From: Massilia sp. MS-15
GTDB lineage: Bacteria; Pseudomonadota; Gammaproteobacteria; Burkholderiales; Burkholderiaceae_D
Direction of reading: 5' to 3'
DNA: 64,000 nucleotides
Assembly (NCBI RefSeq): GCF_020176695.1
Contig: NZ_JAIWIA010000030.1
Location: forward strand, 1-64,000
This document shows positions 116 to 13,322 of the stretch, one piece after another. The position numbers and the translations under genes were made by a program. The notes under the pieces were generated by a model. The model did no database searches. It saw nothing but the letters and a program-made list of their open reading frames with translations, and was not told where the DNA came from. Position 1 is the stretch's first letter. Every line of letters starts with the position of its first letter.

Positions 116-433
116 ATGTCCGCTCCGAACCAGAAAATCCGCATCCGCCTGAAAGCGTTCGACTACAAGCTGATCGACCAGTCCGCCCTGGAAATCGTCG
201 ACACCGCCAAGCGCACCGGCGCTGTGGTCAAGGGCCCGGTCCCGCTGCCGACCCGTATCCAGCGTTTCGACGTCCTGCGTTCGCCGCACGTCAACAAGAC
301 CTCGCGCGACCAGTTCGAAATCCGCACCCACCAGCGCCTGATGGACATCGTGGATCCGACCGACAAGACCGTCGACGCGCTGATGAAGCTCGACCTGCCG
401 GCTGGCGTCGACGTCGAGATCAAGCTGCAGTAA
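116..433 (+). CDS. rpsJ: 30S ribosomal protein S10 (NusE)
   Basis: The product is S10, a small-subunit head protein that also acts as NusE in transcription antitermination. It is 105 aa, close to the usual 103. The text shows the S10 pattern: [15 protein letters not shown] near the N-terminus, then [18 protein letters not shown]. The ATG at 116 follows AAAAGGAAATAGC, so longer upstream starts are rejected. In most bacteria rplC follows within about 100 bp. Here rpsJ is followed by a strong terminator and a 12-kb accessory block, so it looks monocistronic. Confidence 0.98.
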
Positions 434-471
434 TGCCTGATTGACGCAAGCGGAACATCCGCTGCGGCAGC

Positions 472-515
472 AAGGGCCGGGAAGTCCGCGAGGACTCCCG
501 GCCCTTGTCGTTTCC
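472..515 (+). terminator. Intrinsic terminator after rpsJ
   Basis: Left arm 472-487, loop 488-491 and right arm 492-506 give a 15-bp stem with one bulged A. A modest T-rich stretch (GTCGTTT) follows. It would end rpsJ transcription and so uncouples S10 from the rest of its usual operon. Confidence 0.75.
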
Positions 516-616
516 GTCCAGGCAGTCATGCCGCTTCCTGCGGCGAGCGAATCACTCCTGCCGAGCAATGACTGCATAACGCGATCAGCGCCATCAACAG
601 ATAACGCTGACAGCGC

Positions 617-644
617 CAAAAAAAAACAGCGCCGAAGCGCTGTT
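617..644 (-). terminator. Intrinsic terminator of the PEP-CTERM gene
   Basis: On the minus strand the stem AACAGCGC / GCGCTGTT closes a TTCG tetraloop and runs straight into a run of T residues (the A-run at 618-626 on the plus strand). It sits just downstream of the PEP-CTERM stop codon. Confidence 0.9.
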
Positions 645-655
645 TGCCGGGATGA

Positions 656-1366
656 TCAGTTCTTCTTGCGGCGGCGCGCGGCGCCCAGGCCGGCCATCGC
701 GAGACCCATCAGCGCCAGGCTGCCCGGTTCCGGCACGGCGGCCGCATCCACGTTCAGGTTGGGGGCCGTGACGGTGAAGACCACACCGTTGTCCACATTC
801 GCGGTGCGGAAGCCGACCGAGGCGATCTGGGTCGACTTGTTGCTGCCTGCACCTTTCACCTTCGTATCGGCGTGGACGTGCGCGCCGGTCAAGCTCAGCA
901 TCTCCGACTGGCTCGGATTCAGCCACGCATCCAGATTGTCGTAGTAGGCGCTGCCCTCGCTCTTGTAGAGGTAGGCGAAGATGCGGTATTCCTTGCCGTC
1001 TTCGAGGTCGCTGCCGCTCAGGAAGACGCCGCTGGTACCGCCGAGGCGCACGAACACGTCGTCGGTGCAGGTACCGTCGCCGCAATTGGCCTTGACCCCA
1101 ACACTAGCTTCGTCCGAGCTGTTGAACCAGAAGCCCAGGAAATCATTGTTATCCAGCTCATCCTTGGCAGTTTTGGACTTGGTCGGCGTGAAACTGAACG
1201 TGAAATCGATGCTGATGCCATCGGTATCTGCCTTCGGCAGCGTGTAGGTCGCTGAGTTTGCACTGTTGCCGGCATATTTCTTGGCGAAACCTGACAGGAC
1301 GCTTGCGTTGGCGGCGCTGCTGAAGCTGAACAGTGCGGCAAGGGCAATGGTGGAAAATTTAAGCAT
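656..1366 (-). CDS. PEP-CTERM sorting domain protein
   Basis: This is an exported protein of about 236 aa. It starts with a signal peptide (MLKFSTIALAALFSF to about ANA-SV). It ends with a classic PEP-CTERM tail: VPEPGS, a short hydrophobic stretch (LALMGLAMAGLG) and a basic end (AARRRKKN). Such proteins are normally cleaved by exosortase (EpsH/XrtA) and are linked to extracellular matrix or floc formation. The middle region was not recognised; it has one Cys pair (NCGDGTC). I chose the ATG at 1366 over the TTG at 1375 because of its spacing from AGAG. A sigma-54-type promoter lies upstream, and no exosortase is in the window. Confidence 0.9.
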   Translation of the reverse strand: MLKFSTIALAALFSFSSAANASVLSGFAKKYAGNSANSATYTLPKADTDGISIDFTFSFTPTKSKTAKDELDNNDFLGFWFNSSDEASVGVKANCGDGTCTDDVFVRLGGTSGVFLSGSDLEDGKEYRIFAYLYKSEGSAYYDNLDAWLNPSQSEMLSLTGAHVHADTKVKGAGSNKSTQIASVGFRTANVDNGVVFTVTAPNLNVDAAAVPEPGSLALMGLAMAGLGAARRRKKN

Positions 1367-1404
1367 GGTCGTCAATCTCTGGATTGGTTATTGTTCTATA
1401 TCCT

Positions 1405-1423
1405 GTAGCAAATAACATGCCAA
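1405..1423 (-). promoter_or_regulatory. Sigma-54 (-24/-12) promoter of the PEP-CTERM gene
   Basis: The minus strand reads TTGGCATG-N4-TTGCTA. The invariant GG (1421-1420) and GC (1409-1408) are exactly 10 nt apart, as in the RpoN consensus TGGCACG-N4-TTGCW. The transcription start would be near 1397, about 30 nt before the ATG. RpoN control of PEP-CTERM genes through PrsK/PrsR has been reported in floc-forming betaproteobacteria. Confidence 0.8.
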
Positions 1424-1472
1424 GAATAAATTTCTCTTTCCAATCAGATATTTACGAATTTCAACTTCCCTT

Positions 1473-1485
1473 GTTCATAGTGAAC
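1473..1485. promoter_or_regulatory. Inverted repeat, possible enhancer-binding site
   Basis: GTTCA-TAG-TGAAC is a perfect 5-bp inverted repeat, about 50 bp upstream of the -24 box. It is a reasonable place for a PrsR/NtrC-type activator, but the sequence has not been matched to a known site. Confidence 0.35.
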
Positions 1486-1531
1486 TGTAAAGTTTTTCGA
1501 CAACGCACTGGCAAGCCAGCGCGTCGTCCAC

Positions 1532-2779
1532 TCAACCCTTCGTTCCTGTCTTCCAGCGCATGCCGAAGCCAAAATGGCGGTCCATCAGCTCGTGCGCACT
1601 GGTGCCGCCCTGCTGCTGGAAGTACTCGGCCAGCTTGGTGACCTGCAGGTTACCGTTGCGGTTCTCGATCAGCGCGATCGCGCACATGATCTGGTTGCCC
1701 CCGCCGTCCAACCGCACTTCGATCGGCGCCTGCCCCGGCGCGGCGATGGTCACCACGCCATCGGTCGCCGACCAGTTGGGCACGCCCTCGTAGATGAAGG
1801 AAAAGATCAGGGCGCGCCGGATCAGGTCGAAGCGCTCGCCGTTGATGTACAGGTTCTCGCCGCCCGCCGCGGCGCCGGTGCGGTCGTCCGCGTCGAGCTG
1901 GATGTAGGGTTCGCGCTCGAAGTCGCCCCAGGCATTGCCGAGCGCCTGCACCAGGCCGCGCCGGCCATCGGCCAGTTCGTACATGCAGCCGAGGTCGAGG
2001 TCGATGCCGCCACGGCCCTTGCGCGCACCGCCACCCATGCCCCCCATGCCGCCCATCAGCTTGTCGAAGAAACCGGTCTTCGCGGGCGGCTGCGGCTGCG
2101 GCGGTGCGGCCGTGGCCGACTGGTTCCAGTTCAGGTTGACGTGGATGCGTCCGAAGCCGCCGCCGGCGCGCTTGTCGAGCGAGACCTTGTCGCCACGTTT
2201 TTCCAGCGTGACTTTCGACAGCGAGACCTTCGGGCCCGGGACCGGGGAAGGAGCGGCAGGAGCGGCAGGCGCCGCCTCGGTACCGCCGAAGTGCGCCAGC
2301 AGCGCCGACAGGCCCCCATTGAAGCCCTGGCCGACGGCGCCGAAGCGCCAGCTGCCGTCACGCCGGTACAGTTCCGCCACGATGACCGCCTTCTCGTCGC
2401 CGAAGTCGGCACCCGACCACGGGAAGCGCACCGCGTTGCCGAGGTTCAGGGCGCAGGCGCCGAGCGCGCGCATGGTTTGCGTGCCGTCAATCGCTGCCAC
2501 GAACACCAGCTTCGCGATCGTCGCCGGCAGGGCATCGAGATTCACGGTGAAACGGGCCAGCGCGCCGCTCAGCTCGAGCCGCACCGCGCCCTCCGGGCTG
2601 GCCAGCTGGTTGTAGAACACCATGTAGCGCTCGTCCGACAGCTTGTCGGCCGCATCCAGGCCGAAGCAGGACACGTCGACCGACATGCCGGGCGCGGCGA
2701 TGTCCAGCTCCACGGTGAAGGCGCTGCCGCAGCCAAGGTCGGCCAGTTTGCCTTTCTGGCCACGCGAAAACAGGTTCAT
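1532..2779 (-). CDS. terA: TerA-type tellurium resistance / stress protein
   Basis: This 415-aa protein resembles TerA. The first ~190 residues are a TerD-like domain (VSCFGLDAADKLSDERYMVF, then [20 protein letters not shown]). A Pro/Gly/Met-rich linker (MGGMGGMGGG) follows. The C-terminal ~125 residues carry TerA hallmarks: DLDLGCMYELADG, VQALGNAWG, YIQLDADDRTG, FIYEGVPNW and MCAIALIENRNG. TerD domains are calcium-binding. The ATG at 2779 overlaps the preceding stop codon (ATGA) and has GGAG upstream. It is the last gene of the Ter cassette. Its role beyond stress or tellurite resistance is not known. Confidence 0.9.
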   Translation of the reverse strand: MNLFSRGQKGKLADLGCGSAFTVELDIAAPGMSVDVSCFGLDAADKLSDERYMVFYNQLASPEGAVRLELSGALARFTVNLDALPATIAKLVFVAAIDGTQTMRALGACALNLGNAVRFPWSGADFGDEKAVIVAELYRRDGSWRFGAVGQGFNGGLSALLAHFGGTEAAPAAPAAPSPVPGPKVSLSKVTLEKRGDKVSLDKRAGGGFGRIHVNLNWNQSATAAPPQPQPPAKTGFFDKLMGGMGGMGGGARKGRGGIDLDLGCMYELADGRRGLVQALGNAWGDFEREPYIQLDADDRTGAAAGGENLYINGERFDLIRRALIFSFIYEGVPNWSATDGVVTIAAPGQAPIEVRLDGGGNQIMCAIALIENRNGNLQVTKLAEYFQQQGGTSAHELMDRHFGFGMRWKTGTKG

Positions 2780-3681
2780 GAGGGTTCTCCTTCCATCGAA
2801 CGGGATCCAAAACGGTGGGACTGCTCCACCAGGCGCTCGGCCCAGGCGCGGTGGGTCGCCACTTCGCACATCGCGTCATCCATGCGGAACACGGCGGGAC
2901 TGGTTTCGTCCAGGATGGCGCGCGCCACCGCCAGGTCCTGCGGGCGCACCTGGTAGTGGCGCTCGATCGGGTCGACCTGGGTCGGGTGGATCGCGGTCTT
3001 GCCGACCATGCCGTGGGCCAGGTCTTCCAGCACCTCCTGGTCGAGCAGCTCGGGCAGGTCGAGGTATTCGAACACCGGCGCCGTCAGCGCGAAGCCATAG
3101 GGGCGGAAGGTGGTGACCAGGCGCGCGATCACCGGGCCCAGCGGGGTGCGGTAGATGGTCATGCCGCGCGGCCGGCGCAGTCCGAGCAGGGCGAGCAGGT
3201 CGTTGCCGCCGATGCGCAGGGCCAGGATGCGGTGGCGCACGCCGGGCGCCTCGAACACCGCGCGCAGCTGCTGCATTTCGCCGTCGCTGAAGACCTCGGC
3301 CGTTTCCAGTGTCGGCATCAGGACGTGGTCGGTGTCGCGCACCAGGCGGAAATAGGATTCGAAGTTGTGGCGCGTGATCTTCGGCAGCACGAAGCCGGCC
3401 AGCTTCTCCACGCCGGGCATGGCCAGCACGCGCGCCAGCACGTCCGGGTTGCGCACCCGCACGAAGCGCTCGACGGTGGCGTCGGCGCGCATGTTGGCCA
3501 GCACCACCGACAGGTTGAACAACGACCAGCTCAGTTCGCGCTCGGCGATGGCGTCTTCCAGGCAAAAGATGAGCGAGCGCGCGCCGGGCAGCTTGTCGCC
3601 ATCGGCGATGCTGGCCAGGTCCTTGTGGTTGGCCGGCACGTAGAGCGACGCGCCGAGCGACTGGTTTGCCAGCTTAAGCAT
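2776..3681 (-). CDS. CitE-like / HpcH-HpaI aldolase-fold lyase of the Ter cassette
   Basis: A 301-aa TIM-barrel protein of the citrate lyase beta subunit-like group. Visible features are LIFCLEDAIAE (acidic metal-binding strand), FVLPKIT, ALRIGGNDLL and a KTAIHPTQV motif near residue 237. The ATG at 3681 is preceded by AGGAG. The gene overlaps the upstream PRTase by 8 nt and the downstream terA by 4 nt, so translation is probably coupled. In comparative studies of Ter systems, this lyase belongs to a conserved set predicted to make a nucleoside-like metabolite. The substrate is unknown. Confidence 0.85.
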   Translation of the reverse strand: MLKLANQSLGASLYVPANHKDLASIADGDKLPGARSLIFCLEDAIAERELSWSLFNLSVVLANMRADATVERFVRVRNPDVLARVLAMPGVEKLAGFVLPKITRHNFESYFRLVRDTDHVLMPTLETAEVFSDGEMQQLRAVFEAPGVRHRILALRIGGNDLLALLGLRRPRGMTIYRTPLGPVIARLVTTFRPYGFALTAPVFEYLDLPELLDQEVLEDLAHGMVGKTAIHPTQVDPIERHYQVRPQDLAVARAILDETSPAVFRMDDAMCEVATHRAWAERLVEQSHRFGSRSMEGEPS

Positions 3682-4756
3682 CCGATGCACTCCTGATCAG
3701 GGAAACGGCATGATAGGGCAGCTCCGGGTCGATGACGACCGGAACCTGTTTTTCTTGTGCCAGCAGCTCGAGGTGCGCCACCTCGGCGTGGCCAGCCCGG
3801 CGCAGCACCAGCAGGCGCGGCACACGGCGCAGCAGCACGCGCGTGGCTTCGCCGATACCGGGCTTGACCAGATTCACGTCCTGGATACCATGGCGCGCCA
3901 GCGCCGCCTCCAGGTAGCCGCGCGAACGTACTGCCGCGGCCCGGGCGTCGAGCGGCTGCGCGTCCGGCACCGAGGCGGGCGCCAGCGCCACCAGCGCATC
4001 GACGAAACGCTGCGACTGGTCGTGCGGGGCGAACTGTTCGTAGAAGACGCAGCCGTGGAAGTCGTCCGGGCCGATGCGTTCGTCCAGCACCGTGCGGCTG
4101 ACCAGGCCCGACACAGTGGCATTCAGGATGCTCGACGGGATCAGGTAATCCTCGCCGGATGCCGCGCAGGCAGCCGCGCCGGCCAGGTCGGACAGCACGT
4201 ACAGGCCGTGGTCGATGCAGGTGTCCTGCGCCGCGTTGAAGGCCGACACCGAGCGCGCCAGTTCGCGCGCGATCACGCCCTTGCCGGTCCAGCCGTCCAC
4301 GAACACGATCGATGCCGGCGCGTGGCCGCTGGCCAGGATGTGGCGCAGCGCCGCCGCATCGATGCCGCGGTCGCGCACGATCGACACCGAATAGTGCACC
4401 GCCTGCCGTCCGAAGGTTTCGCGCAGCAGGCGCGCCACCACCACGCCCACCGGGGTGCCTGCGCGCGCCAGCGAGACCAGGGTGATGGGGCCGTCGCGGC
4501 GATCGGCGATCAGCGCCGCCAGTCGCAGGCAGTCGGCCGCCATGCGCGCATTGTTGGCGCGGCAGGCCTGCTCGAACAGGTCCATGTAGCGCTGCGAGGG
4601 CACCGCTTCGGGTGACAGCATCTGGCTGTAGTGGCGCTGGCCGGACTGGATCAGGCGTTCCTTGGCGGCGACGTCGGTGAAGGTCTGGGCCCGGGCCTGC
4701 AGGCGGGTCAGCAGGAAATCGACCTCGCCGCTGCGGTAGCTGCCGGCGAAGCTCAT
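3674..4756 (-). CDS. Phosphoribosyltransferase with C-terminal PELOTA-like domain (Ter cassette; StiP family)
   Basis: A 360-aa protein often annotated as 'cysteine protease StiP'. It carries a phosphoribosyltransferase-like core: SLARAGTPVGV at about 95-105 and a PRPP-loop-like VFVDGWTGKGVI at 151-162. The last ~85 residues, including LVLRRAGHAEVAHLELL, look like the PELOTA RNA-binding domain described for this family. The ATG at 4756 overlaps the HAD stop codon (ATGA) and has GGAGG upstream. Reading the core as a PRTase rather than a protease follows published comparative work on Ter operons. The reaction has not been shown. Confidence 0.85.
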   Translation of the reverse strand: MSFAGSYRSGEVDFLLTRLQARAQTFTDVAAKERLIQSGQRHYSQMLSPEAVPSQRYMDLFEQACRANNARMAADCLRLAALIADRRDGPITLVSLARAGTPVGVVVARLLRETFGRQAVHYSVSIVRDRGIDAAALRHILASGHAPASIVFVDGWTGKGVIARELARSVSAFNAAQDTCIDHGLYVLSDLAGAAACAASGEDYLIPSSILNATVSGLVSRTVLDERIGPDDFHGCVFYEQFAPHDQSQRFVDALVALAPASVPDAQPLDARAAAVRSRGYLEAALARHGIQDVNLVKPGIGEATRVLLRRVPRLLVLRRAGHAEVAHLELLAQEKQVPVVIDPELPYHAVSLIRSASDA

Positions 4757-5505
4757 AGCGCCTCCACGGTCAGGCGCGCCAGCTGGGTGGCGCGCGGCAC
4801 GATGGCATAGTCGCAGGCCGCCATGAAGCGCGCGTCCGAGCGGCTGTCGCCCATGCCGAAGGTGACGATGTCGCCGTGCTCGGCGCGCAGCCGGTGCGTG
4901 ACGTGGGCCACGGCATTGGCCTTGTCGAGCGCCTTCGGCAGGATCGCCAGGTTGTTGCCGTTGCGGTGCACGACGTAGCCCGGGTTGCCGGCCGCGATCC
5001 AGGGGCGCACGACCTCGTCCTCGATTGGCGCCAGGCGCGCATGCTGCTTGTCCGGGTCCTTCACCACCAGGAAGAAGGGCGTGTCGAAATCCTCGATCAT
5101 GCGCGCGCGGCCGCCGAAACCGGTGGCGGCGGCATAGGCCTCGATGTGGCGCGCCAGCTCTTCCAGGCCCGGCAGGGCGGCGTGCATGGCTGCGCGCATC
5201 TCGCCCAGCCAGGGCTGGTCGGGGACGCCGCCGGGCTCCAGCACCACGCCGCCATAGTTGATGATGGCGTAGCTGTCGAAAGGCAGGTGCACGCGGCGCA
5301 GGCCGTCGTGGTCGCGCGCGGTGGTCGGGATCACCGTCATCCCGTCCTGCACGAAGCCGAGAAAGGCGCGCTGGGCGCGCGTGGTGTACGAACAGATGCT
5401 GCCGTCCTTGTAGTAGGCGGCCGGCTCGAGGTGCGCGCGCGGCGCGCACTTCTCGAAGGTCTGGAACAGCGTGTCGTCCAGGTCAGCGAACAGGAACTTC
5501 TTCAA
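4753..5505 (-). CDS. HAD-superfamily phosphatase of the Ter cassette
   Basis: About 250 aa. The HAD motif I is ADLDDTLFQT, with nucleophile and acid Asp at residues 8 and 10. Motif IV is MGDSRSDARFM near the C-terminus. The likely start is TTG at 5505, because the catalytic motif begins only six residues later. This makes a 23-nt overlap with the upstream PRTase gene; any longer start would read deep into that gene. The end overlaps the next start by 4 nt. The family role is presumed dephosphorylation of an intermediate in the Ter-linked pathway. Confidence 0.85.
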   Translation of the reverse strand: MKKFLFADLDDTLFQTFEKCAPRAHLEPAAYYKDGSICSYTTRAQRAFLGFVQDGMTVIPTTARDHDGLRRVHLPFDSYAIINYGGVVLEPGGVPDQPWLGEMRAAMHAALPGLEELARHIEAYAAATGFGGRARMIEDFDTPFFLVVKDPDKQHARLAPIEDEVVRPWIAAGNPGYVVHRNGNNLAILPKALDKANAVAHVTHRLRAEHGDIVTFGMGDSRSDARFMAACDYAIVPRATQLARLTVEAL

Positions 5506-6667
5506 CGTCGGTCTCGGACTGGAAGTGGAACAGGCGCGCGCCGAGCTGTCCGGCGAAGCCGCGCAGGGCGGCATTCGGCGCGGTCTCGTGGCAGACCAGC
5601 ACGTGGTCGTACTGGCCGGGCGCGATGTTGTAGATGAAATTGGGGACGCCCTCACCGTAGTTGTCGGGAAAGGACAGGGCATGGCCGACCGCGCCCCAGG
5701 TGAGGATGGGCGAGCGCGTGCTCGACTGCACGTGCACGTCCAGGCCGCGGTCTTCCAGCGCCCGGCCGAGCAGCAGTGCCGCGTGCATGAATTCGCCCGT
5801 ACCCAGCACGGCGACGCGCGCGCCAGGGGTGAATTCGCCCGCCAGCCTGGCCGCCAGTTCCGTCGGAGTGCGCAGCGCGGCGCGCAGCCCGAGGCGCCCG
5901 AAAGCGGGGCTGGCGCCGCGGTCGGCGTCCGGGTCGAAACGCTGGGCTGCACCGGCAGGGGCCACGTAGTCGCCCGGCGTGAAGCGGTACTCTCCGCTGA
6001 CCAGCGCGCCCATGCTCACGGGCAGGCCGAAACGCGTTGCCAGGCCCGCGGTGGCGGCGCGTCCCATGAAATTGGTGATCGTGGCCAGGTGCACGCGCGC
6101 GATGCCTGGATTCAGGCGGCGGCAGGCATCGGTCAGGTTCAGGAAGGTGTTGCCGGTGCTGGCTTCGTCGTCGACCAGCACCAGCGTGCGTGCGCCCAGC
6201 AGCAGCGCACGCAGCGCAGGGTCTTGCGGCAGATGCAGGAACTGGCGCGGCGCGTGGCTGTGCGCTTCCTCGAATTCGATCAGCGGTCCGCTGCCCACGC
6301 GGTAGCGCGTGGTGTGGATGAACAGCGCCTCACGGCCCGGATGCGCGCGCAGCCAGGCCTCGAACACGCCCTGGCCCAGGCCGATCGCGGTTTCGGCCAT
6401 CGCGATGAAGACCAGCGGGCCTTCGTTCTCCGGCACGGTGGCGGCCAGGCGCTCGTGAACGGCGAGCATGGCGGCCGGCCTCACCGGCCAGTGCTTGCCC
6501 AGTACCTTGCTCAGGAACAGGAAGCCGCGCTTGGCATTGGCGCGCGCGGCGAAACCGAGCAGGGCATCGGCTTCCCCGGCGCCGTCTTCGAGCGTGAGCT
6601 CGAGCAGGCCGGTGGGCAGCGCCACGCTGCGCCGGGCCAGCAGGGCCGGGTCGGACGTGGCATTCAT
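5483..6667 (-). CDS. Phosphoribosyltransferase with C-terminal TRSP domain (Ter cassette)
   Basis: 394 aa. The N-terminal half is a PRTase with a clear PRPP-binding loop, LVLVDDEASTGNT (163-175). The C-terminal third is the TRSP domain, which shows its name-giving motif at 317-320 (SSTRSPIL) and GTGEFMHAALLLGRALE before it. The ATG at 6667 overlaps the ATP-grasp stop codon. Two different PRTases in one operon are typical of the Ter-associated metabolite module. The substrate is unknown. Confidence 0.88.
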   Translation of the reverse strand: MNATSDPALLARRSVALPTGLLELTLEDGAGEADALLGFAARANAKRGFLFLSKVLGKHWPVRPAAMLAVHERLAATVPENEGPLVFIAMAETAIGLGQGVFEAWLRAHPGREALFIHTTRYRVGSGPLIEFEEAHSHAPRQFLHLPQDPALRALLLGARTLVLVDDEASTGNTFLNLTDACRRLNPGIARVHLATITNFMGRAATAGLATRFGLPVSMGALVSGEYRFTPGDYVAPAGAAQRFDPDADRGASPAFGRLGLRAALRTPTELAARLAGEFTPGARVAVLGTGEFMHAALLLGRALEDRGLDVHVQSSTRSPILTWGAVGHALSFPDNYGEGVPNFIYNIAPGQYDHVLVCHETAPNAALRGFAGQLGARLFHFQSETDVEEVPVR

Positions 6668-7683
6668 GGCAGCTCCAGCGCGTCAGCCACTTCGGCCACC
6701 CGCATGCCGTTGGCGACCGGCGGCACCTCGACCGTGTCGAAGCCGTCGGCAAAGCCCTTCAGCGCGATCCAGGGCAGGTTCGGCCCGGCCGCGCAAGCCA
6801 TGCCGATGCCGCCCGACATGCGCGGGTTGATTTCCAGCAGGCGTGGTTTGCCGTTCGCTTCGCGGAACTGCACGTTGAACACGCCGTTCAGGCCATGATC
6901 GGCGGCGAGCTGCGTGGTGGCCTCGATGATCTCGGGCCGCATGTCGATCAGCTGGCCGGCGCCGGCCTGGCCCAGCTTGCGGCGCGCTACCGCCGCCACC
7001 AGGCGACCCCCGTCGCCGACGCAGTCGACGCTGTACTCGTGGCCCTCAAGGAATTCCATCAGCAGCATGGTGCGAAACTCGCCGAGTTCGGCCAGGCCGC
7101 GGCGCAGGTCGTGGTAGCCGATGTGGTATTCGACCCCGCCCAGCAGCAGGGCGGCGCTGCTGCGCTCCTCGTCGACCACGGCAAAGCCGATGCCATAGAT
7201 GCCGTGCGAGGGCTTGATGCACAGCTTCGCATGGCGCGGGCGCAGCTCGGCCCAGGCGGCGTCGAAGCCGGCCAGGTCCTCGAAGCGGCGGAACTCGGCC
7301 ACCGGCGCCTGTGGCAGGCGGGTTTCGGCATAGAAGCCGGCCTTGTCGTGGATGAGCTGCAGCCTGGCCGGCGTGGCGGCACTCAGCACGCGCGTGCCGA
7401 TCTCCAGGAAGCGCGCGTGGTGGGCCGCCAGCGCGGTCGCCTCGCGGCCCGGCACGAAGATGTCGATGCGCTGGGCGCGGCAGAACTCCAGGCACCAGTC
7501 GACGTAGGCCGTCGACTCGAGCCCGACCGGTTCGCGGTGGAATTCGTGGGCCAGCAGCGCGGCCGGCGTGTGGCGGTTCGCATTGCTGTGGATGATGGTG
7601 AAGCGGCCTGCCGTATCGGCGGCGCGCACCAGCCGGATCGCGGCGTAGACGGACGAGAAGGTCCTGTTGTACCAGACGCGCAT
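6664..7683 (-). CDS. ATP-grasp enzyme of the Ter cassette
   Basis: 339 aa with an ATP-grasp fold: KPSHGIYGIGF (157-167) as the nucleotide loop, LMEFLEGHEYSVD (208-220), and the metal-binding LLEINPRMSGG (282-292). Such enzymes join a carboxylate to an amine or thiol through an acylphosphate. The ATG at 7683 is preceded by AAAGAG, and the alternative TTG at 7695 is less likely. It is first in the run of overlapping genes that ends with terA, 93 nt after terD, with a hairpin in the gap. Confidence 0.88.
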   Translation of the reverse strand: MRVWYNRTFSSVYAAIRLVRAADTAGRFTIIHSNANRHTPAALLAHEFHREPVGLESTAYVDWCLEFCRAQRIDIFVPGREATALAAHHARFLEIGTRVLSAATPARLQLIHDKAGFYAETRLPQAPVAEFRRFEDLAGFDAAWAELRPRHAKLCIKPSHGIYGIGFAVVDEERSSAALLLGGVEYHIGYHDLRRGLAELGEFRTMLLMEFLEGHEYSVDCVGDGGRLVAAVARRKLGQAGAGQLIDMRPEIIEATTQLAADHGLNGVFNVQFREANGKPRLLEINPRMSGGIGMACAAGPNLPWIALKGFADGFDTVEVPPVANGMRVAEVADALELP

Positions 7684-7710
7684 GGACTCTTTCAAGACAG
7701 GTGGACAAAC

Positions 7711-7729
7711 GCCCGCCGGAAGGGCGGGC
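7711..7729 (-). terminator. GC hairpin between terD and the biosynthetic genes
   Basis: GCCCGCC / GGCGGGC form a 7-bp stem with a 5-nt loop. On the minus strand GTTTGTCC follows. It could act as a weak terminator, letting terD be expressed more strongly than the enzymes downstream. There is no real T-run, so this is tentative. Confidence 0.4.
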
Positions 7730-7776
7730 GCGGTAATGCAGGCGGCTGGCGCTGCTCTTTATCGTATCCGGACTGC

Positions 7777-8352
7777 TTAGACGTTGACGCCGAACGAGCG
7801 GGCCAGCGGACCCAGGCCGCCGTTGAAACCCTGGCCGACGGCGCGGAATTTCCATTCGCCGCCATGGCGGTACAGTTCACCGAAGATCATCGCGGTTTCG
7901 GTCGAGCTGTCCTCGGACAGGTCGTAGCGCGCGATCTCGGCTTCGCCGTTGCCGTTCAGGCAGCGGATGTAGGCCTTGGCGACCATGCCGAAATTCTGGT
8001 GGCGCGCATCGGCGTCGTGGATGGTGACGCAGAACGAGACCTTCTCGATGTCGGCGGGTACGCGCGACAGGTCGACCGCGATCTTCTCGTCGTCGCCATC
8101 GCCCTGGCCGGTGGTGTTGTCGCCGGCGTGGACCACCGAGCCATCGGTCGACTTCAGGTTGTTATAGAAGATGAAGTCGCTGTCGCCGCGCACCTTGGCA
8201 TCCGCCTTGAGCATGAAGGCGCTGCCGTCGAGGTCGAAGGCCGCGCCATCGGTGGCGCGTGGGTCCCAGCCCAGGCCGATGATGACCTTGGTCAGGCCGG
8301 GGGCTTCCTTGCTCAGGTTGACGTTGCCGCCTTTTTGCAGACTGATTGCCAT
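7777..8352 (-). CDS. terD: TerD family calcium-binding stress protein
   Basis: 191 aa, the normal TerD length. It begins [15 protein letters not shown] and shows DLDGSAFML (40-48) and the acidic [13 protein letters not shown] (77-89), where TerD proteins bind calcium. It ends [16 protein letters not shown]. The start ATG has AGGAG seven bases upstream. It opens the Ter cassette, 134 nt downstream of the MscS gene. The cassette lacks terB, terC, terZ and terF, so classical tellurite resistance is uncertain. Confidence 0.95.
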
Positions 8353-8486
8353 ATGAACTCCTATGAAAGGTCAGGGGTGGATCGGCCAGCCTCGTACCGC
8401 GAAGGGCACGCGGGCCGGCGGACGTACATTATCCGATTGTACACGCTACGGATTTCACAATGTTCACTCTCTCGCGTGTTTGTATG

Positions 8487-9599
8487 TCACGCCTGGCAGC
8501 GCGTTGACGCGGCTTCGCGCCTGTCGGGCGCGACCTGGTCCACCATTGGCTGGCTGCTGGCCGTGTCCAGGCGCACCTGGTGGGCCGGCAGCGCCAGCCG
8601 CACGCCCTGCTGGCCCAGCATGGCCACGATGCCCAGGTAGATGTCCTGCTGCACGTCCATGTAGACGCGGTAGTCGGCGCTGTTCACGTAGTACACCACC
8701 TCGAAGGTATAGGCCGGCGCGGCGAGTGAGCCCAGGTGTGCGCGGTCGAAGCGCACCTGCGGCTGGGCCGCGACGATCGCTTCGAGCAGGCCGGGCAGGG
8801 CGCGCAGGGTAGGTTCAGGCGTATCATAGGTGACCGCGATCCGGAATACCACGCGCCGTTCTTCCATGCGGCGCAGGTTGCGGATCCGGCTCTTGAGCAG
8901 GTCGGCATTCGAGAACACGATCTGCTCGCCGTCCAGGCTGCGCACGCGGGTGGTCTTCAGGCCGATGCGTTCGACCGTGCCAAGCATGCTGTCGACGATG
9001 ATGAAGTCGCCCGTCACGAAGGGCTTGTCGACCACGATCGAGAGCGAGGCGAACAGGTCGCCCAGGATGCTCTGCACCGCCAGCGCCAGCGCGATGCCGC
9101 CGATACCGAGGCTGGCCACCAGCGTGGTGATGTTGACGCCAAGGTTATCGAGGATCATCAGGCCCACGACCGACCACAGCGCCACCCGGCCCAGGTAGGC
9201 GATCGCCACCGAGGTGGTGACGCGGTCGGGATCGGCCACTTGCCGGGCGCGGGCGGCGGCCAGCCAGGCCCGCACCGCATGGTCGCCCCAGATCGCGCAC
9301 TGGGCGAGCACCGCGGCGATCGCCACGCGGCCCACCAGGAGCTGTGCGCGTTCGGACAGCGTGAGCAGGCTGGCGCCGGCGTACAGGCCGATCACGACCA
9401 GCACCGCCAGCCGGGTTGCCGACAACGCGGCCAGCGTCACGGCGGCCGGGCGTGCAGCTTCCGGCGCGGCGGCGACGCAGGCGCGCAGGCGCCGCAGCAG
9501 GATCGATTTCAGCGTATCGAGGCCAACCGCGACGATGGCCGCCAGTGCCAGCGCCACCAGCCAGTCGCCCAGGGGGTTGGCGAGGAAAATGGAGTTCAT
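8487..9599 (-). CDS. Small-conductance mechanosensitive channel (MscS family)
   Basis: 370 aa. Several N-terminal membrane segments lead to the Gly/Ala-rich pore helix SLGIGGIALALAVQSIL (163-179), followed by VDKPFVTGDFIIVD, which opens the cytoplasmic beta domain. MscS channels release solutes when membrane tension rises after osmotic downshock. The ATG at 9599 has AAGGAA upstream. It starts 14 nt after the ggpPS stop and is probably co-transcribed with it. That pairs synthesis of an osmolyte with a channel for releasing solutes. Confidence 0.93.
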   Translation of the reverse strand: MNSIFLANPLGDWLVALALAAIVAVGLDTLKSILLRRLRACVAAAPEAARPAAVTLAALSATRLAVLVVIGLYAGASLLTLSERAQLLVGRVAIAAVLAQCAIWGDHAVRAWLAAARARQVADPDRVTTSVAIAYLGRVALWSVVGLMILDNLGVNITTLVASLGIGGIALALAVQSILGDLFASLSIVVDKPFVTGDFIIVDSMLGTVERIGLKTTRVRSLDGEQIVFSNADLLKSRIRNLRRMEERRVVFRIAVTYDTPEPTLRALPGLLEAIVAAQPQVRFDRAHLGSLAAPAYTFEVVYYVNSADYRVYMDVQQDIYLGIVAMLGQQGVRLALPAHQVRLDTASSQPMVDQVAPDRREAASTRCQA

Positions 9600-9613
9600 G
9601 CGTGTTCCTTTCT

Positions 9614-11932
9614 TCAGGCGGCACAACGCTCGTCGCGGGCGGGCGCGTCCTGCGGCGCCAGCGCGGCCAGGAAGCCGTCGCCCCAGCGCGTGACGTCGTG
9701 TTCGTCCACGATCATCGCCAGCCGCCCGGCGCGGTAGGCGACTTCGTCCTCGCCCATGCTCAGCGCCTGGTACAGGGTCTCGCTCATGGCGTTGGCGTCG
9801 TAGGGATTGACCAGCAGCGCGCCGTGCAGCTCCACTGCGGCGCCGGCGAATTCGGACAGGATCAGTACCCCGGGCCGTCCCACCGCACCGCGGGTGGCGA
9901 CGTACTCCTTGGCCACCAGGTTGAGGCCGTCGCGCAGGGGCGTGATCCAGGCGATGCCGCAGGCGGCGTAGTGGGCCACTACATCCTCGAAGGGCAGCGA
10001 GCGGTAGAAGTAACGCACCGGGACCCAGTCAAGCGTCGAGAAGCGGCCATTGATGCGGCCCACGGTGCGGTCGAGTTCCTCGCGCAGGCTGTCGTAGATC
10101 TCCATGCCGCTGGCGGCCGGCGTGACGATGTTCAGCAGCGTCACCTTGCCCAGCAGTTCCGGATGGCGTTCCAGCATGCGCTCGTAGGCCTGCAGCTTCT
10201 CCAGCGAGCCTTTCACATAGTCGAGGCGCTCGATCGAGACAATCCCGGTCCTGCCTTCCAGCAGCCCGTCGAGTTCGGCCAGCTGGCGCCGTACCTCGCC
10301 CTGGTCCAGCAGGTGCCGGATCAGCTTGACGTCGGTGCCGACCGGATGGGCGCCCAGTGCCACCCGGCGTCCGCCGACCTCGATCGCGGTGCTCATGCGG
10401 TCGACGCCGAGCGCGCAGCCATAGGTGAGGAAGCGCGGCGCGCATGGGACGCTGCCGGCCACGTCCACCGGCGCGAACGAGCGTACCGCATCGACGAAGT
10501 TCTCGACGTAGCGCGGGATGTGAAAGCCCACGTAGTCGCACTGCAGCAGGCTGCCGATGATGTCGCGCCGCCATGGCAGGATGTTGAACACGTCGCTCGA
10601 GGGGAAGGCGGTGTGGTGGAAGAAGGCGATCGTGAGGTCCGGGCGCAGCGGGCGCAGGAAGGCCGGCACCATCCACAGGTTGTAGTCGTGGATCCAGGCG
10701 GTGGCGCCGTGGGCGGCCTCGCGCGCGGTCTGCTCGGCAAACAGGCGGTTCACTTCCAGGAAGCGCTCCCAATGGGCCTGGTGGAATTCGGCCTTGTCGG
10801 GGAAGGAGAAAATGATCGGCCAGAAGGCCTCTTTCGAGAACTTCTTGTAGAACAGATCGATGTCCTCGCGGGTGAGGGCGATGCGCGCCGCCTTGAGCTG
10901 CCGATAGCGCTGCGGGTCGACCGCCACGTGGGTGTCGAAACCTTGCGGCGTGCGCGAGGCCTGCTGCGACCAGGCCACCCACGAGCCCTTGCGCCCGCCG
11001 GCGAAGAAGTTCAGCAGGGTCGGCATGATGCCGTTCGGGCTCTTCGGGCGGCGCTGCAGCGTGATGCCGTCCACCACCAGTTCATCGTAGGGCAGGCGGT
11101 GGTAGACCATCACCAGGTCGGCGCCATCCACGGCCGGGGGCGCGGGCAGCGCGGATGCGGCACCGGCCGCCATGCCGTGGTGCGCCAGGCCTTCCAGAAT
11201 GCCGCCACAGCCTTCGGCCGTGGCCAGGTGCACACGCGGATTGCGGCATACGCGCTCGACCAGGGCCGGTTCGGCGCCGCCCACGGCCACGCCGCGCAAA
11301 CCGGTCTCGAACATCGACAGGTCGTTCAAGGTGTCGCCCGCCACCACCACGCTGGCCGGATCGAAACCGGCGACCGTGACCAGGCGGCGCAGGGCCATAC
11401 CCTTGCCGACGCCGCGCGGCAGCACGTCGAGGTAGCGGCCGGCCGAGAACAGCAGCTCGCAGTCGAGCGCGGCCACCGCCGCGCGCAGTGCCGGCGTGAT
11501 GGCGTCTTCGGTCGCGAGGAAGGAGCAGCGTCTTTCCTGCGGCACGCTCTGGCGCACCAGTTGCGGAAAGCCCGCCAGGGCGCGCAGCACGGCCTGGCTG
11601 CCCGGCCAGTGGGCGGTGAGTTCGTGCTGGATCGGCTCCACCGGGCGCAGCTCGCGATCGACCACGGTGGCGCCGACGTCGGCGATGATGTAGTCGGGAC
11701 GCGGAATGGTCGGATCGCTCAGCAGGGGCATCACGCTTTCCAGGCCGCGCCCGGTGACGAATACGAGGGTGGGACGGGAGGCCTGCTGGGTACCGGTGGC
11801 GCTGAACAGGTCGCGCACGCGGCGCCGTGCCTCGGGCGTACCGGCCAGCAGCGTGCCGTCGAGGTCGGTGGCGAGCACGAGGCGGGCGGGATCGAGGGGG
11901 CGGGACCAGCGTTGCGCATCAATGATAGTCAT
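9614..11932 (-). CDS. ggpPS: Bifunctional glucosylglycerol-phosphate phosphatase/synthase (GgpPS)
   Basis: 772 aa in two parts. Residues 1 to about 245 form a HAD phosphatase of the sucrose/trehalose-phosphatase type: TDLDGTLLAG with Asp 23 and 25, and VVAGDTLNDLSMF later. From about 260 a GT20 glycosyltransferase begins with MVYHRLPYDE and RRPKSPNGIMPTLLNFF, which match glucosylglycerol-phosphate synthase better than OtsA. FFHHTAFPSSD, ERLDYVKG and TPLRDGLNLVAKEYVA follow. The expected reaction is ADP-glucose plus glycerol-3-phosphate to glucosylglycerol, a salt-stress osmolyte. A trehalose-phosphate synthase/phosphatase is the main alternative. Confidence 0.85.
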   Translation of the reverse strand: MTIIDAQRWSRPLDPARLVLATDLDGTLLAGTPEARRRVRDLFSATGTQQASRPTLVFVTGRGLESVMPLLSDPTIPRPDYIIADVGATVVDRELRPVEPIQHELTAHWPGSQAVLRALAGFPQLVRQSVPQERRCSFLATEDAITPALRAAVAALDCELLFSAGRYLDVLPRGVGKGMALRRLVTVAGFDPASVVVAGDTLNDLSMFETGLRGVAVGGAEPALVERVCRNPRVHLATAEGCGGILEGLAHHGMAAGAASALPAPPAVDGADLVMVYHRLPYDELVVDGITLQRRPKSPNGIMPTLLNFFAGGRKGSWVAWSQQASRTPQGFDTHVAVDPQRYRQLKAARIALTREDIDLFYKKFSKEAFWPIIFSFPDKAEFHQAHWERFLEVNRLFAEQTAREAAHGATAWIHDYNLWMVPAFLRPLRPDLTIAFFHHTAFPSSDVFNILPWRRDIIGSLLQCDYVGFHIPRYVENFVDAVRSFAPVDVAGSVPCAPRFLTYGCALGVDRMSTAIEVGGRRVALGAHPVGTDVKLIRHLLDQGEVRRQLAELDGLLEGRTGIVSIERLDYVKGSLEKLQAYERMLERHPELLGKVTLLNIVTPAASGMEIYDSLREELDRTVGRINGRFSTLDWVPVRYFYRSLPFEDVVAHYAACGIAWITPLRDGLNLVAKEYVATRGAVGRPGVLILSEFAGAAVELHGALLVNPYDANAMSETLYQALSMGEDEVAYRAGRLAMIVDEHDVTRWGDGFLAALAPQDAPARDERCAA

Positions 11933-12168
11933 GGTGCATCCTTTTTTTGCGATGCGTCCGCCCGCAGGGCGGCGGACCAGGTCGGGGCATGGGGAGGTCG
12001 CCAGAGGGCGGACATGCCAGGGAACAGGGCAGGGCGCGGCACAGCTGCCGTCGGCACTGCCGCGCCGGCTGCCGGCGAAGAAAAACATGGGAATGCGGGA
12101 GGGCTGGCCGGCGGCCGCACCGTGCCCTGCACGTCGCCGCCGGCGCCTGTTCCGCAAAATACATTTGT

Positions 12169-12197
12169 ACAATAACATTTTGAGCGGGCAACGACAA
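12169..12197 (-). promoter_or_regulatory. Candidate ggpPS promoter
   Basis: The minus strand reads TTGTCG, 17 nt, TATTGT; each box matches the sigma-70 consensus at 4 of 6. If used, the transcript would have a leader of about 225 nt before the ggpPS ATG. Confidence 0.4.
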
Positions 12198-12271
12198 CCC
12201 GCGATCCGCCCGCCTGGACGGGAGTGGCGGGGCTTGCGAGCGGCCCGTTCGACACGATCGAAAAAAAGCTA

Positions 12272-12301
12272 TTGCAAAACTGCTGGGCTGCTACGTATAA
12301 T
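12272..12301 (+). promoter_or_regulatory. Promoter of tRNA-Val
   Basis: TTGCAA at 12272-12277, an 18-nt spacer, and a perfect TATAAT at 12296-12301. It lies 10 bp before the mature tRNA 5' end. Confidence 0.8.
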
Positions 12302-12311
12302 GCGGCTCCCC

Positions 12312-12388
12312 GGGCGGTTAGTTCAGCTGGTTAGAATACTTGGTCGACATCCAAGGGGTCGCAGGTTCGAATCCTGCACCGCCCACCA
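12312..12388 (+). tRNA. tRNA-Val (anticodon GAC)
   Basis: A 77-nt cloverleaf with encoded CCA. The acceptor stem GGGCGGT pairs with ACCGCCC. The D stem is GTTC/GAAT, the anticodon stem CTTGG/CCAAG with loop TCGACAT, and the T stem GCAGG/CCTGC with loop TTCGAAT. Anticodon GAC (34-36) and A73 fit valine. Two oddities: position 33 counts as C rather than the usual U, and the D and variable regions, including a G10-U25 pair, look like tRNA-Asp. Confidence 0.88.
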
Positions 12389-12431
12389 GACTTCCAGATC
12401 GCAGGCTCCCAGCAATGGTCGTAGCCTGCAG

Positions 12432-12459
12432 AGAAAAGGCGCAGCGGTGTGCCTTTTCT
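12432..12459 (+). terminator. Terminator after tRNA-Val
   Basis: AGAAAAGGC / GCCTTTTCT form a 9-bp stem with a 10-nt loop. The T-rich part of the right arm can act as the U-tract. It separates the tRNA from the rplC promoter. Confidence 0.6.
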
Positions 12460-12543
12460 GTGCTGACCAGCAGGTCAGATTCCTTGCTCTCTCCAGCTAC
12501 TGCGGAAAACGCAACAGGCCGAGGTCACCTCGAATTTATCCTG

Positions 12544-12572
12544 TTGCGCCGTTGCCGTTTGCGCGCTATACT
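12544..12572 (+). promoter_or_regulatory. Promoter of the rplC-rpsQ (S10) operon
   Basis: TTGCGC at 12544-12549, exactly 17 nt, then TATACT at 12567-12572. The start would be near 12580, giving a leader of about 85 nt before rplC. It gives this ribosomal operon its own start, independent of rpsJ. Confidence 0.75.
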
Positions 12573-12665
12573 AGCCGGCTTCGGTGTGGGCGCGTCTTTT
12601 TCAGCCCATGCTTTTTTAGTAGTACTAATTAGCCCCGCCCAATCGTAGGTGGGAATGGAGAAAAA

Positions 12666-13322
12666 ATGAGCCTGGGCCTCCTCGGTCGCAAGGTTGGTAT
12701 GATGCGTATCTTCACGGATGACGGCGATTCGATCCCTGTCACCGTGCTGGACGTGTCCAACAACCGTGTTGCGCAAGTCAAAACCCCTGAAACTGACGGC
12801 TACACTGCTGTGCAAGTCGTCTTCGGCCAGCGTCGCGCTTCCCGCGTGAACAAGGCTGCTGCTGGTCACTACGCCAAAGCTGGCGTGGAAGCTGGCACGA
12901 TGCTGCGTGAATTCCTCATCGATTCCGCTAAAGCCGCTGAACTCAAAGCCGGCGACACCATCAATGCTTCGATGTTCGAAGTGGGCCAGAAAATCGACGT
13001 GCAGGGCACCTCGATCGGTAAGGGCTACGCCGGTACCATCAAGCGTCACAACTTCGCCTCGGGTCGTCAGACCCACGGTAACTCGCGTTCGCACAATGTT
13101 CCTGGCTCCATCGGTATGGCGCAGGATCCGGGTCGCGTGTTCCCAGGCAAGCGCATGACCGGTCACATGGGCGACGTTACCGTCACCACCCAGAACCTGG
13201 AAATCGCCCGCATCGACGCTGACCGTCAACTGCTGCTCGTGAAGGGTGCCGTTCCTGGCGCCAAGAACGGCCAGGTGATCGTCAAGCCGGCTGTCAAAAC
13301 CAAAGCCAAGAAAGGAGCCTAA
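12666..13322 (+). CDS. rplC: 50S ribosomal protein L3
   Basis: 218 aa. L3 binds 23S rRNA near its 3' end and starts large-subunit assembly. It begins [20 protein letters not shown], and the loop region [18 protein letters not shown] is typical. Here it is the first gene of the operon because rpsJ lies 12 kb away. The ATG follows GGAGAAAAA. rplD starts 2 nt after its stop codon. Confidence 0.98.

What the first reader, a model, noticed from the sequence alone, without database searches (positions are those of the whole stretch)
1532..8352. Compact Ter cassette coding for a predicted nucleoside-like metabolite
terD, ATP-grasp, PRTase-TRSP, HAD, PRTase-PELOTA, CitE-like lyase and terA lie on one strand; from the ATP-grasp gene onward they all overlap by 4-23 nt. 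Two different PRTases with RNA-linked or unknown C-terminal domains, plus a ligase, a phosphatase and a lyase, suggest synthesis of an unknown ribosylated compound. The enzyme set is known from comparative studies of Ter systems, but its product is not. Here terB, terC, terZ and terF are absent, so the minimal version may act without the membrane arm.
Basis: partly seen in the sequence, partly recalled or inferred. Interest (0 to 1): 0.75.

Follow-up and report, generated by a model that had tools for sequence, protein, structure and literature searches.

The report
Split Ter stress-metabolite gene cassette
A Massilia-group bacterium carries a known but unexplained stress-response enzyme cassette, parked inside a ribosomal-protein operon away from its usual membrane partners; one of its enzymes matches an already crystallised sugar-phosphate phosphatase, which makes its unknown product easier to look for.

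Summary
The cassette is real and correctly read: terD, ATP-grasp, PRTase_2-TRSP, HAD, StiP (PRTase-PELOTA), CitE-like lyase, terA. It is the published Ter biosynthetic module. "Without the membrane arm" holds only for the locus: this genome has DUF475/TerC-TerD-AIM24-TerZ, TerC beside a TerB-like gene, TelA-TerD and a TerF-like gene elsewhere. DUF475 is in 62 of 62 genus genomes, the cassette in 35; in Pseudoduganella both lie in one locus. So this is a split Ter system, with the cassette lodged between rpsJ and rplC. New leads: (1) the cassette HAD of a P. aeruginosa plasmid is about 93% identical to PDB 6d3v, "trehalose phosphatase"; (2) StiP, called a cysteine protease in public annotation, models as a PRTase with an L7Ae-like tail; its best VIA-align match is CriT, which O-ribosylates a polyol from PRPP and works with a HAD phosphatase. 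Best reading: PRPP-dependent ribosylation, then dephosphorylation, feeding a membrane arm encoded in trans. Against: two of 15 StiP-positive genomes in a phylum sample show no TerC, and TelA/TerF co-occurrence in the genus is phylogenetically confounded. The product remains unknown.

The parts
7777..8352 (-). terD, 191 aa, head of the cassette
   Evidence: Pfam TerD 1.8e-86; 75% identical to the terD of the DUF475 module on C30; left behind alone when the other six genes are missing in G034
7710..7730 (-). G+C-rich hairpin (8-bp stem) in the 93-nt gap between terD and the ATP-grasp gene, followed by TTTGT; possible attenuator
   Evidence: fold; NOT listed by the terminator scan, so weak
6664..7683 (-). 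ATP-grasp ligase, 339 aa
   Evidence: Pfam ATPgrasp_Ter 1.2e-44
5483..6667 (-). PRTase_2-TRSP, 394 aa
   Evidence: Pfam; DDE-x-x-TG-x-T: D166, D167, E168, T171, G172, T174 in 57 of 57 rows; model matches adenine PRTases, best Z 13.0
4753..5505 (-). HAD phosphatase, TTG start, 250 aa
   Evidence: PDB 6cj0/6d3v/6d3w 'Trehalose phosphatase', E 3.7e-32 over residues 4-248; HAD-IIB-type NCBIfam matches below their cut-offs
3674..4756 (-). StiP: PRTase-fold domain plus PELOTA/L7Ae-like tail, 360 aa
   Evidence: Pfam; model pLDDT 92.7; fold matches; L7Ae match of the tail
2776..3681 (-). CitE-like C-C bond lyase, 301 aa from ATG (304 from GTG at 3690)
   Evidence: Pfam C-C_Bond_Lyase 1.7e-91; PDB citrate lyase 3qll 3.8e-5
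1532..2779 (-). terA: TerD domain plus C-terminal extension, 415 aa
   Evidence: Pfam TerD 6.2e-31; ATG overlaps the lyase stop
116..433 (+). rpsJ (S10), one edge of the split S10 operon
12666..13322 (+). rplC (L3), other edge of the split S10 operon; rplD and further ribosomal genes follow

Best explanation
This is the biosynthetic half of a Ter stress-response system that has been split over two or more loci. Two PRTase-fold proteins use PRPP (PRPP loops shown by conservation, folds by models; activity inferred). Most likely one of them puts ribose-5-phosphate on an acceptor and the HAD then removes the 5-phosphate, the same transfer-then-dephosphorylate logic as CriT/CrpP, or trehalose-6-P synthase and phosphatase (inferred). 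The lyase and the ATP-grasp ligase tailor or pre-build the acceptor; they are absent from some more distant loci, so PRTase_2-TRSP + HAD + StiP is the core. The L7Ae-like tail of StiP may place the chemistry on, or regulate it by, RNA (inferred). The product is read by TerD-family proteins and acts through a TerC-like DUF475 membrane module that in Massilia is encoded at another locus (its presence is shown; the partnership is inferred from its orthologue lying in one locus with the cassette in Pseudoduganella).
For: Domains and overlaps. StiP: D154, W156, T157, K159, G160 in 57 of 57 rows; Foldseek's 50 shown rows are almost all PRTases, best 4p83_C 3.8e-4; VIA-align 8a0c_A (Bcs3) Z 11.6, 196 residues, rmsd 3.8, chain 639-973, inside CriT (592-1036); next rows PyrR/HPRT, Z about 10. 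Tail of StiP: 39 PDB sequences at E up to 1, all of the L7Ae/Snu13/eL8/S12 kind by name, best 0.0032. HAD: full-length match to 6d3v/6cj0 at 3.7e-32; the orthologue between PRTase_2 and StiP on P. aeruginosa plasmid pPUV-8 is about 93% identical to it (18 mismatches in 251, counted by eye). Core trio: in 12 further phylum-sample stretches PRTase_2 12, HAD 11, lyase 6, ATP-grasp 3 of 12; phage ME3 has only the trio. Split: DUF475 in 62 of 62 genus genomes; DUF475-TerD-AIM24-TerZ complete in 59 of 62; one locus with the cassette in Pseudoduganella L113, whose DUF475 groups with the Massilia C30 type (local support 0.93).
Against: No reaction, acceptor or product is shown. 8a0c is not among the 50 Foldseek rows shown, its Z lead over PyrR is 1.5, and the StiP profile finds no PRTase in the PDB by sequence at E up to 1. 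The Ter HAD matches HAD-IIB (C2-type cap, recalled) models, whereas CrpP has its cap right after motif I. The DUF475 arm is equally present without the cassette (27 of 27 StiP-negative genus genomes), so it does not depend on it. Two StiP-positive genomes (G198, G218; 96 and 95% complete) show no TerC match, and TerC is not enriched with StiP: 13 of 15 against 320 of 396 overall.
Confidence: 0.5

Rival explanations
1. One reading: an N-nucleoside-like metabolite made by a minimal cassette that needs no membrane arm.
For: PRTase_2 is closest to adenine PRTases (Z 13.0) and StiP also matches PyrR/HPRT (Z about 10). TerC is not within the flanks in 13 of 13 Massilia and 13 of 42 other well-flanked loci. 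Two StiP-positive genomes show no TerC at all.
Against: TerC-like, TerZ-like, TerF-like, TelA and a weak TerB homologue are all in this genome. In one of the two TerC-less genomes whose locus I read in full (G218) a sodium/calcium exchanger and TerB follow StiP, so a membrane protein is still there.
Confidence: 0.2
2. The HAD (and so the cassette) works in trehalose or osmolyte metabolism; the rpsJ-rplC cargo is an osmotic-stress island with a MscS channel and a fused GT20 + HAD enzyme next door.
For: The HAD's solved homologue is filed as trehalose phosphatase; recombinant Paer-ecTPP was studied as a T6P phosphatase (passages of PMC6838324). mscS and the GT20 fusion neighbour the cassette.
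Against: mscS and the GT20 fusion are beside the cassette only in part of the Massilia stretches and not in the other genera read; the cassette carries no GT20; mscS is near rpsJ without the cassette too.
Confidence: 0.1
3. StiP is a cysteine protease, as public annotation says.
For: Pfam and RefSeq name; an HGC motif with H234 in 57 of 57 rows and C236 in 56 of 57.
Against: PRTase fold in the model and its matches; PRPP loop invariant; one row has Ser at 236.
Confidence: 0.05
4. The cassette makes a defence signal against phages or plasmids.
For: Proposed for Ter systems in PMC7824862 (passages); partial cassettes in jumbo phage ME3; 2,567 of 72,556 plasmid records hold StiP.
Against: PADLOC gives only two weak matches to StiP (5.8e-4 and 0.0098) and none to the other six. 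In Massilia it is chromosomal and clade-wide rather than in a defence island.
Confidence: 0.15

Closest known systems
Ter biosynthetic module (Anantharaman, Iyer, Aravind 2012; seen only as cited in PMC8115787, PMC9933665 and PMC7824862)
   Same: Same enzymes and TerD-family partners.
   Different: Here detached from TerC/TerB/TerZ/TerF, which sit at other loci, and lodged between rpsJ and rplC.
Polaromonas naphthalenivorans plasmid pPNAP04 cluster
   Same: Same order terD-ATP-grasp-PRTase_2-HAD-StiP-lyase-terA; StiP 64% identical.
   Different: DUF475 and TerD genes directly upstream in cis, and a kinase/PP2C/TerY group downstream.
IncHI2 ter locus (Enterobacter plasmid pSTN0717-73-1)
   Same: ATP-grasp, PRTase_2, HAD, StiP and lyase in the same order.
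   Different: Divergent terZABCDEF beside it and terW/X/Y beyond; StiP about 40% identical.
P. aeruginosa 'trehalose phosphatase' PDB 6d3v/6d3w/6cj0 (Paer-ecTPP by inference)
   Same: Full-length homologue of the cassette HAD; its near-identical copy sits between PRTase_2 and StiP on pPUV-8.
   Different: 34% identical to the window protein; published as a trehalose-6-phosphate phosphatase.
Bcs3 CriT/CrpP, PRPP-dependent O-ribosyl transferase with HAD phosphatase (PMC10299916)
   Same: PRTase-fold domain as best VIA-align match of StiP (Z 11.6); pairing of a PRTase-fold enzyme with a HAD.
   Different: No sequence match found; separate genes; L7Ae-like tail; other HAD type; acceptor unknown.

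Membership tests
Ter biosynthetic module | PRTase_2-TRSP, StiP-PELOTA, HAD, ATP-grasp and CitE-like lyase together | tested here: met
   HAD
Ter biosynthetic module | Linked TerD-family genes | tested here: met
   terD and terA at the two ends
Ter biosynthetic module | TerC-like membrane protein in the same locus | tested here: not met
   none in the cassette or its neighbours; DUF475/TerC elsewhere in the genome. Not universal in the family: 29 of 55 well-flanked loci have one in cis
Tellurite-resistance operon terZABCDEF | terZ, A, B, C, D, E, F in one operon | tested here: not met
   only terA and terD here; homologues of the rest scattered
Tellurite-resistance operon terZABCDEF | Confers tellurite resistance | not testable with these tools
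   -
Cysteine protease (StiP label) | Protease fold | tested here: inconclusive
   PRTase-fold matches fill the lists; a family that is not listed is not excluded
Cysteine protease (StiP label) | Invariant catalytic Cys | tested here: inconclusive
   C236 in 56 of 57 rows, Ser in one
Type I phosphoribosyltransferase fold | PRTase fold with a PRPP-binding loop | tested here: met
   both proteins: models, matches and invariant loops; catalysis untested
PRPP-dependent O-ribosyl transferase (CriT, gPRT) | Structural similarity to CriT | tested here: inconclusive
   best VIA-align row, Z 11.6, but PyrR/HPRT rows at about 10
PRPP-dependent O-ribosyl transferase (CriT, gPRT) | Sequence similarity to CriT | tested here: inconclusive
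   the StiP profile matched only L7Ae-type chains at E up to 1
PRPP-dependent O-ribosyl transferase (CriT, gPRT) | Transfer of Ribf-5P to a hydroxyl | not testable with these tools
   -
Trehalose-6-phosphate phosphatase | Homology to the enzyme filed as 6d3v/6cj0 | tested here: met
Trehalose-6-phosphate phosphatase | T6P as physiological substrate | not testable with these tools
Known anti-phage defence system | Match to a PADLOC system model | tested here: not met
   two weak matches to StiP only

The most novel reading that the evidence does not exclude
The Ter 'nucleoside-like metabolite' is not a nucleoside: StiP is an O-ribosyl transferase of the CriT kind that moves ribose-5-phosphate from PRPP to a hydroxyl of a small molecule or RNA (held by its L7Ae-like tail), and the HAD, already crystallised under the name trehalose phosphatase, strips the 5-phosphate. 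The ribosylated product then signals to TerD proteins and to a TerC-like module that can be encoded anywhere in the genome.
Probability: 0.22. Interest if true: 0.8.

Novelty: new variant of a known kind. Interest (0 to 1): 0.5.

Why it matters
The product of the Ter biosynthetic module has been an open question since 2012, although the module rides on thousands of plasmid records (StiP in 2,567 of 72,556). Finding that the cassette HAD corresponds to a purified and crystallised phosphatase gives a direct handle: its substrate preference can be screened now. Recognising StiP as a PRTase-fold protein rather than a protease corrects a label that public annotation repeats widely, and CriT suggests a concrete reaction to test. 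Massilia, with the cassette and the membrane arm at separate loci, allows the two halves to be deleted independently.

Tried and rejected
Genus co-occurrence of TelA (30 of 62) and TerF-like vWA (21 of 62) with StiP (35 of 62): every TelA- or TerF-positive genome is StiP-positive, 0 of 27 StiP-negative ones have either. I first took this as functional linkage, but on an rpoB tree of 58 genomes (no rpoB match in G006, G023, G024, G027) StiP changes only 2 times, TelA 3 and TerF 6 (shuffled means 19.2, 19.7, 16.7), so shared ancestry explains most of it. A first tree was discarded because the longest-ORF rule had picked antisense frames.

Genome-wide TerC presence as a test of dependence: uninformative, 13 of 15 StiP-positive genomes over the cut-off against 320 of 396 overall (the two without TerC were found by reading the listing; 5 further weak StiP matches under the cut-off were left out).

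Terminator between terD and the ATP-grasp gene: a hairpin folds but the scan does not list it.

PRTase_2 and StiP as duplicates of one another: profile comparison gives probability 1.0%, E 0.055, so no support by sequence. PADLOC: nothing useful. Paper searches showed no paper that ties the Ter HAD to the crystallised phosphatase; I saw listings, and passages of seven papers, and neither Cross et al. 2018 nor Anantharaman et al. 2012 is held, so either may say more.
Full report
What is there. The window is the first 64 kb of contig C42 of a 4.5 Mb genome in 108 contigs. The nearest named relatives by StiP are Massilia (81% identity). From the ATP-grasp gene on the genes overlap by 4 to 23 nt; terD stands 93 nt apart, with a G+C-rich hairpin in between that a terminator scan does not list.

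Known system. This is the Ter biosynthetic module. The idea that it makes a nucleoside-like metabolite is published; I saw it as cited in passages of PMC8115787 and, in more detail, in PMC7824862, where PRTases and HAD enzymes make a signal, TerB/TerD sense it and TerC, TelA and TerF respond. The 2012 source paper is not held. In Klebsiella work (PMC9933665, passages; PMC8115787) the function remains open.

The 'missing' arm is in the genome. TerD-domain genes: C42 (two, this cassette), C30 (two), C44 and C104. TerC family: C64 (two), C30, C61 (as two pieces) and a weak one on C1. Pfam of the surroundings: C30 carries DUF475/TerC, TerD, AIM24 and a TerZ-like TerD protein; C44 a MerR regulator, TelA, TerD and an unassigned 293-aa protein; C104 a TerD + vWA-TerF-like protein. 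A weak TerB match (26.0 bits, cut-off 24.4) lies next to TerC on C64. So terB, terC, terZ and terF are absent from the locus but not from the genome.

Genus survey. StiP is in 35 of 62 genus genomes (38 of 120 relatives, 3 of them outside the genus); DUF475 in 62 of 62, mostly two copies each. In the fetched neighbourhoods of the C30-type DUF475, the set DUF475-TerD-AIM24-TerZ is complete in 33 of 34 StiP-positive and 25 of 27 StiP-negative genomes; with G000 that is 59 of 62. The exceptions are G020 (at a contig end), G054 (short contig, TerZ not seen) and G029. In single-contig genomes DUF475 and StiP are hundreds of kb apart. The arm is thus core and the cassette accessory.

Were they one locus? 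In Pseudoduganella lurida (L113) the order is ATP-grasp, PRTase_2, HAD, StiP, lyase, terA, terD, DUF475, TerD, AIM24, TerZ, all on one strand. Its DUF475 groups with the Massilia C30 type (local support 0.93) while the cis DUF475 of Janthinobacterium and Polaromonas groups with the second Massilia copy, C61 (1.0 for the larger clade). Janthinobacterium loci have DUF475-TerD-AIM24 directly upstream of the cassette. In 55 well-flanked loci a TerC-like gene is in cis in 29: 0 of 13 Massilia and 29 of 42 others. The simplest reading is one ancestral unit that was divided in Massilia; I did not date the division.

Where it sits. The cassette lies between rpsJ and rplC, which are neighbours in the S10 ribosomal-protein operon: 12,235 nt apart here, with the rest of the ribosomal cluster following rplC. 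In 16 of 20 genomes outside the genus the two are 31 to 220 nt apart; in the other four (G064, G066, G071, G079) rpsJ is not within the roughly 1.3 kb fetched, and in G064 the cassette sits between them too. Within the genus the gap is 3.8 to 15.2 kb in every stretch where both were read: 7 StiP-negative (G012, G021, G032, G034, G045, G051, G056) and 4 with the cassette (G000, G003, G026, G053), plus the named CFBP 13730 locus; G002's stretch held neither gene. In all 17 genus stretches with the cassette, rpsJ is at its terA side. G034, StiP-negative inside the StiP-positive clade, keeps rpsJ, terD (88% over 584 nt, ending at window 7779) and mscS at the site but none of the other six genes: the six-gene unit went and terD stayed.

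Co-occurrence. TelA (30 of 62) and TerF-like (21 of 62) occur only in StiP-positive genomes. On an rpoB tree of 58 genomes StiP changes twice, TelA three times and TerF six times, so this is mostly shared ancestry and I do not use it as proof. In a phylum sample of 396 genomes, 15 have StiP over the cut-off; 13 of these have TerC against 320 of 396 overall, and two (G198, G218) show none. In G218 the locus reads TerZ, TerD, PRTase_2, HAD, StiP, a sodium/calcium exchanger and TerB: another membrane protein in TerC's place, or a draft gap.

Core and optional enzymes. Among the near relatives PRTase_2, HAD and lyase are in 55 of 55 and ATP-grasp in 50 of 55. In the 12 more distant stretches PRTase_2 is in 12, HAD in 11, lyase in 6 and ATP-grasp in 3 (single-query blastp, contigs sometimes short, so these are lower bounds). 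Phage ME3 has TerD, PRTase_2, HAD and StiP without the other two. PRTase_2 + HAD + StiP looks like the core.

Folds. StiP (57-sequence alignment) models at pLDDT 92.7. Foldseek's best rows are PyrR and HPRT (3.8e-4 and down; one unrelated row, 9a73, is second). VIA-align puts 8a0c chain A first: Z 11.6, 196 residues, rmsd 3.8, chain 639-973; then PyrR/HPRT at about 10. 8a0c is Bcs3, whose residues 592-1036 are CriT, a PRTase-fold enzyme that moves Ribf-5P from PRPP to a hydroxyl of ribitol, and whose CrpP is a HAD that removes the phosphate (PMC10299916, passages). The tail of StiP finds only L7Ae-type chains (best 0.0032). Public annotation calls StiP a cysteine protease; its C236 is Cys in 56 of 57 rows and H234 is invariant, so a role for the pair is possible, but the fold speaks for a PRTase. 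PRTase_2 matches adenine PRTases (Z 13.0); its TRSP part has invariant E292, S319, P320, N347 and E361 but its fold was barely tested.

The HAD has a solved relative. The window HAD matches PDB 6cj0/6d3v/6d3w, 'Trehalose phosphatase', over its full length at 3.7e-32. The HAD between PRTase_2 and StiP on P. aeruginosa plasmid pPUV-8 matches it at 5e-161 with 18 mismatches in 251 positions by my count. Cys85 and Cys231, which PMC6838324 names for the extrachromosomal P. aeruginosa TPP (Paer-ecTPP), fall at exactly those positions in the plasmid protein (my count). That the PDB entries are Paer-ecTPP (Cross et al. 2018) is therefore an inference; the paper is not held. PMC6838324 reports purification and an inhibition constant for it, and says TPPs need T6P as assay substrate; so the Ter HAD family very likely handles a phosphorylated sugar. 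I found no paper linking it to Ter or the earlier searches.

Mechanism. Shown: genes, packing, folds of the models, PRPP loops, presence of the arm elsewhere, unit loss in G034. Inferred: PRPP-dependent ribosylation followed by removal of the 5-phosphate; tailoring by lyase and ligase; reading by TerD; output through the DUF475 module in trans. Whether the bond is N- or O-glycosidic is open; the CriT match makes O-ribosylation worth testing, at perhaps one chance in five.

Verdict. A known module in a new, split arrangement, with two leads (a solved HAD and a CriT-like StiP) that make its product testable.

Noticed in passing
window 116-13322 (rpsJ to rplC): The S10 ribosomal operon is split by 12.2 kb of cargo (cassette, mscS, GT20 fusion, tRNA-Val, a PEP-CTERM protein); the gap is 3.8-15.2 kb in all genus stretches measured and 31-220 nt in 16 of 20 genomes outside the genus.
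   Followed up: partly
window 9614-12130 (minus strand): A fused HAD (Pfam S6PP type) and GT20 protein next to the cassette; S6PP rather than an OtsB-type model is the match.
   Followed up: no
L070 10888-12024: P. aeruginosa plasmid pPUV-8 has a TerD domain joined to a trypsin-like peptidase inside its ter cassette.
   Followed up: no
L307 8012-9160: In a StiP-positive genome without a TerC match, a sodium/calcium exchanger (PF01699) and TerB follow StiP.
   Followed up: partly
L291 9448-10059: In G034 the rpsJ-rplC cargo includes an Arr-type rifampin ADP-ribosyltransferase homologue.
   Followed up: no
L216 and L224: G053 and G010 carry further Ter gene groups: TerF-like, TerD, and a TerY/TerX/PP2C/kinase row, with DUF475 in G053.
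   Followed up: no
L072 11893-12909: Aneurinibacillus plasmid: a StiP homologue (28% identity) beside DNA cytosine methyltransferases with no other cassette gene seen.
   Followed up: no
L014 3295-4176: 293-aa protein without a Pfam match that recurs after TelA-TerD (8 of 8 TelA stretches read).
   Followed up: no
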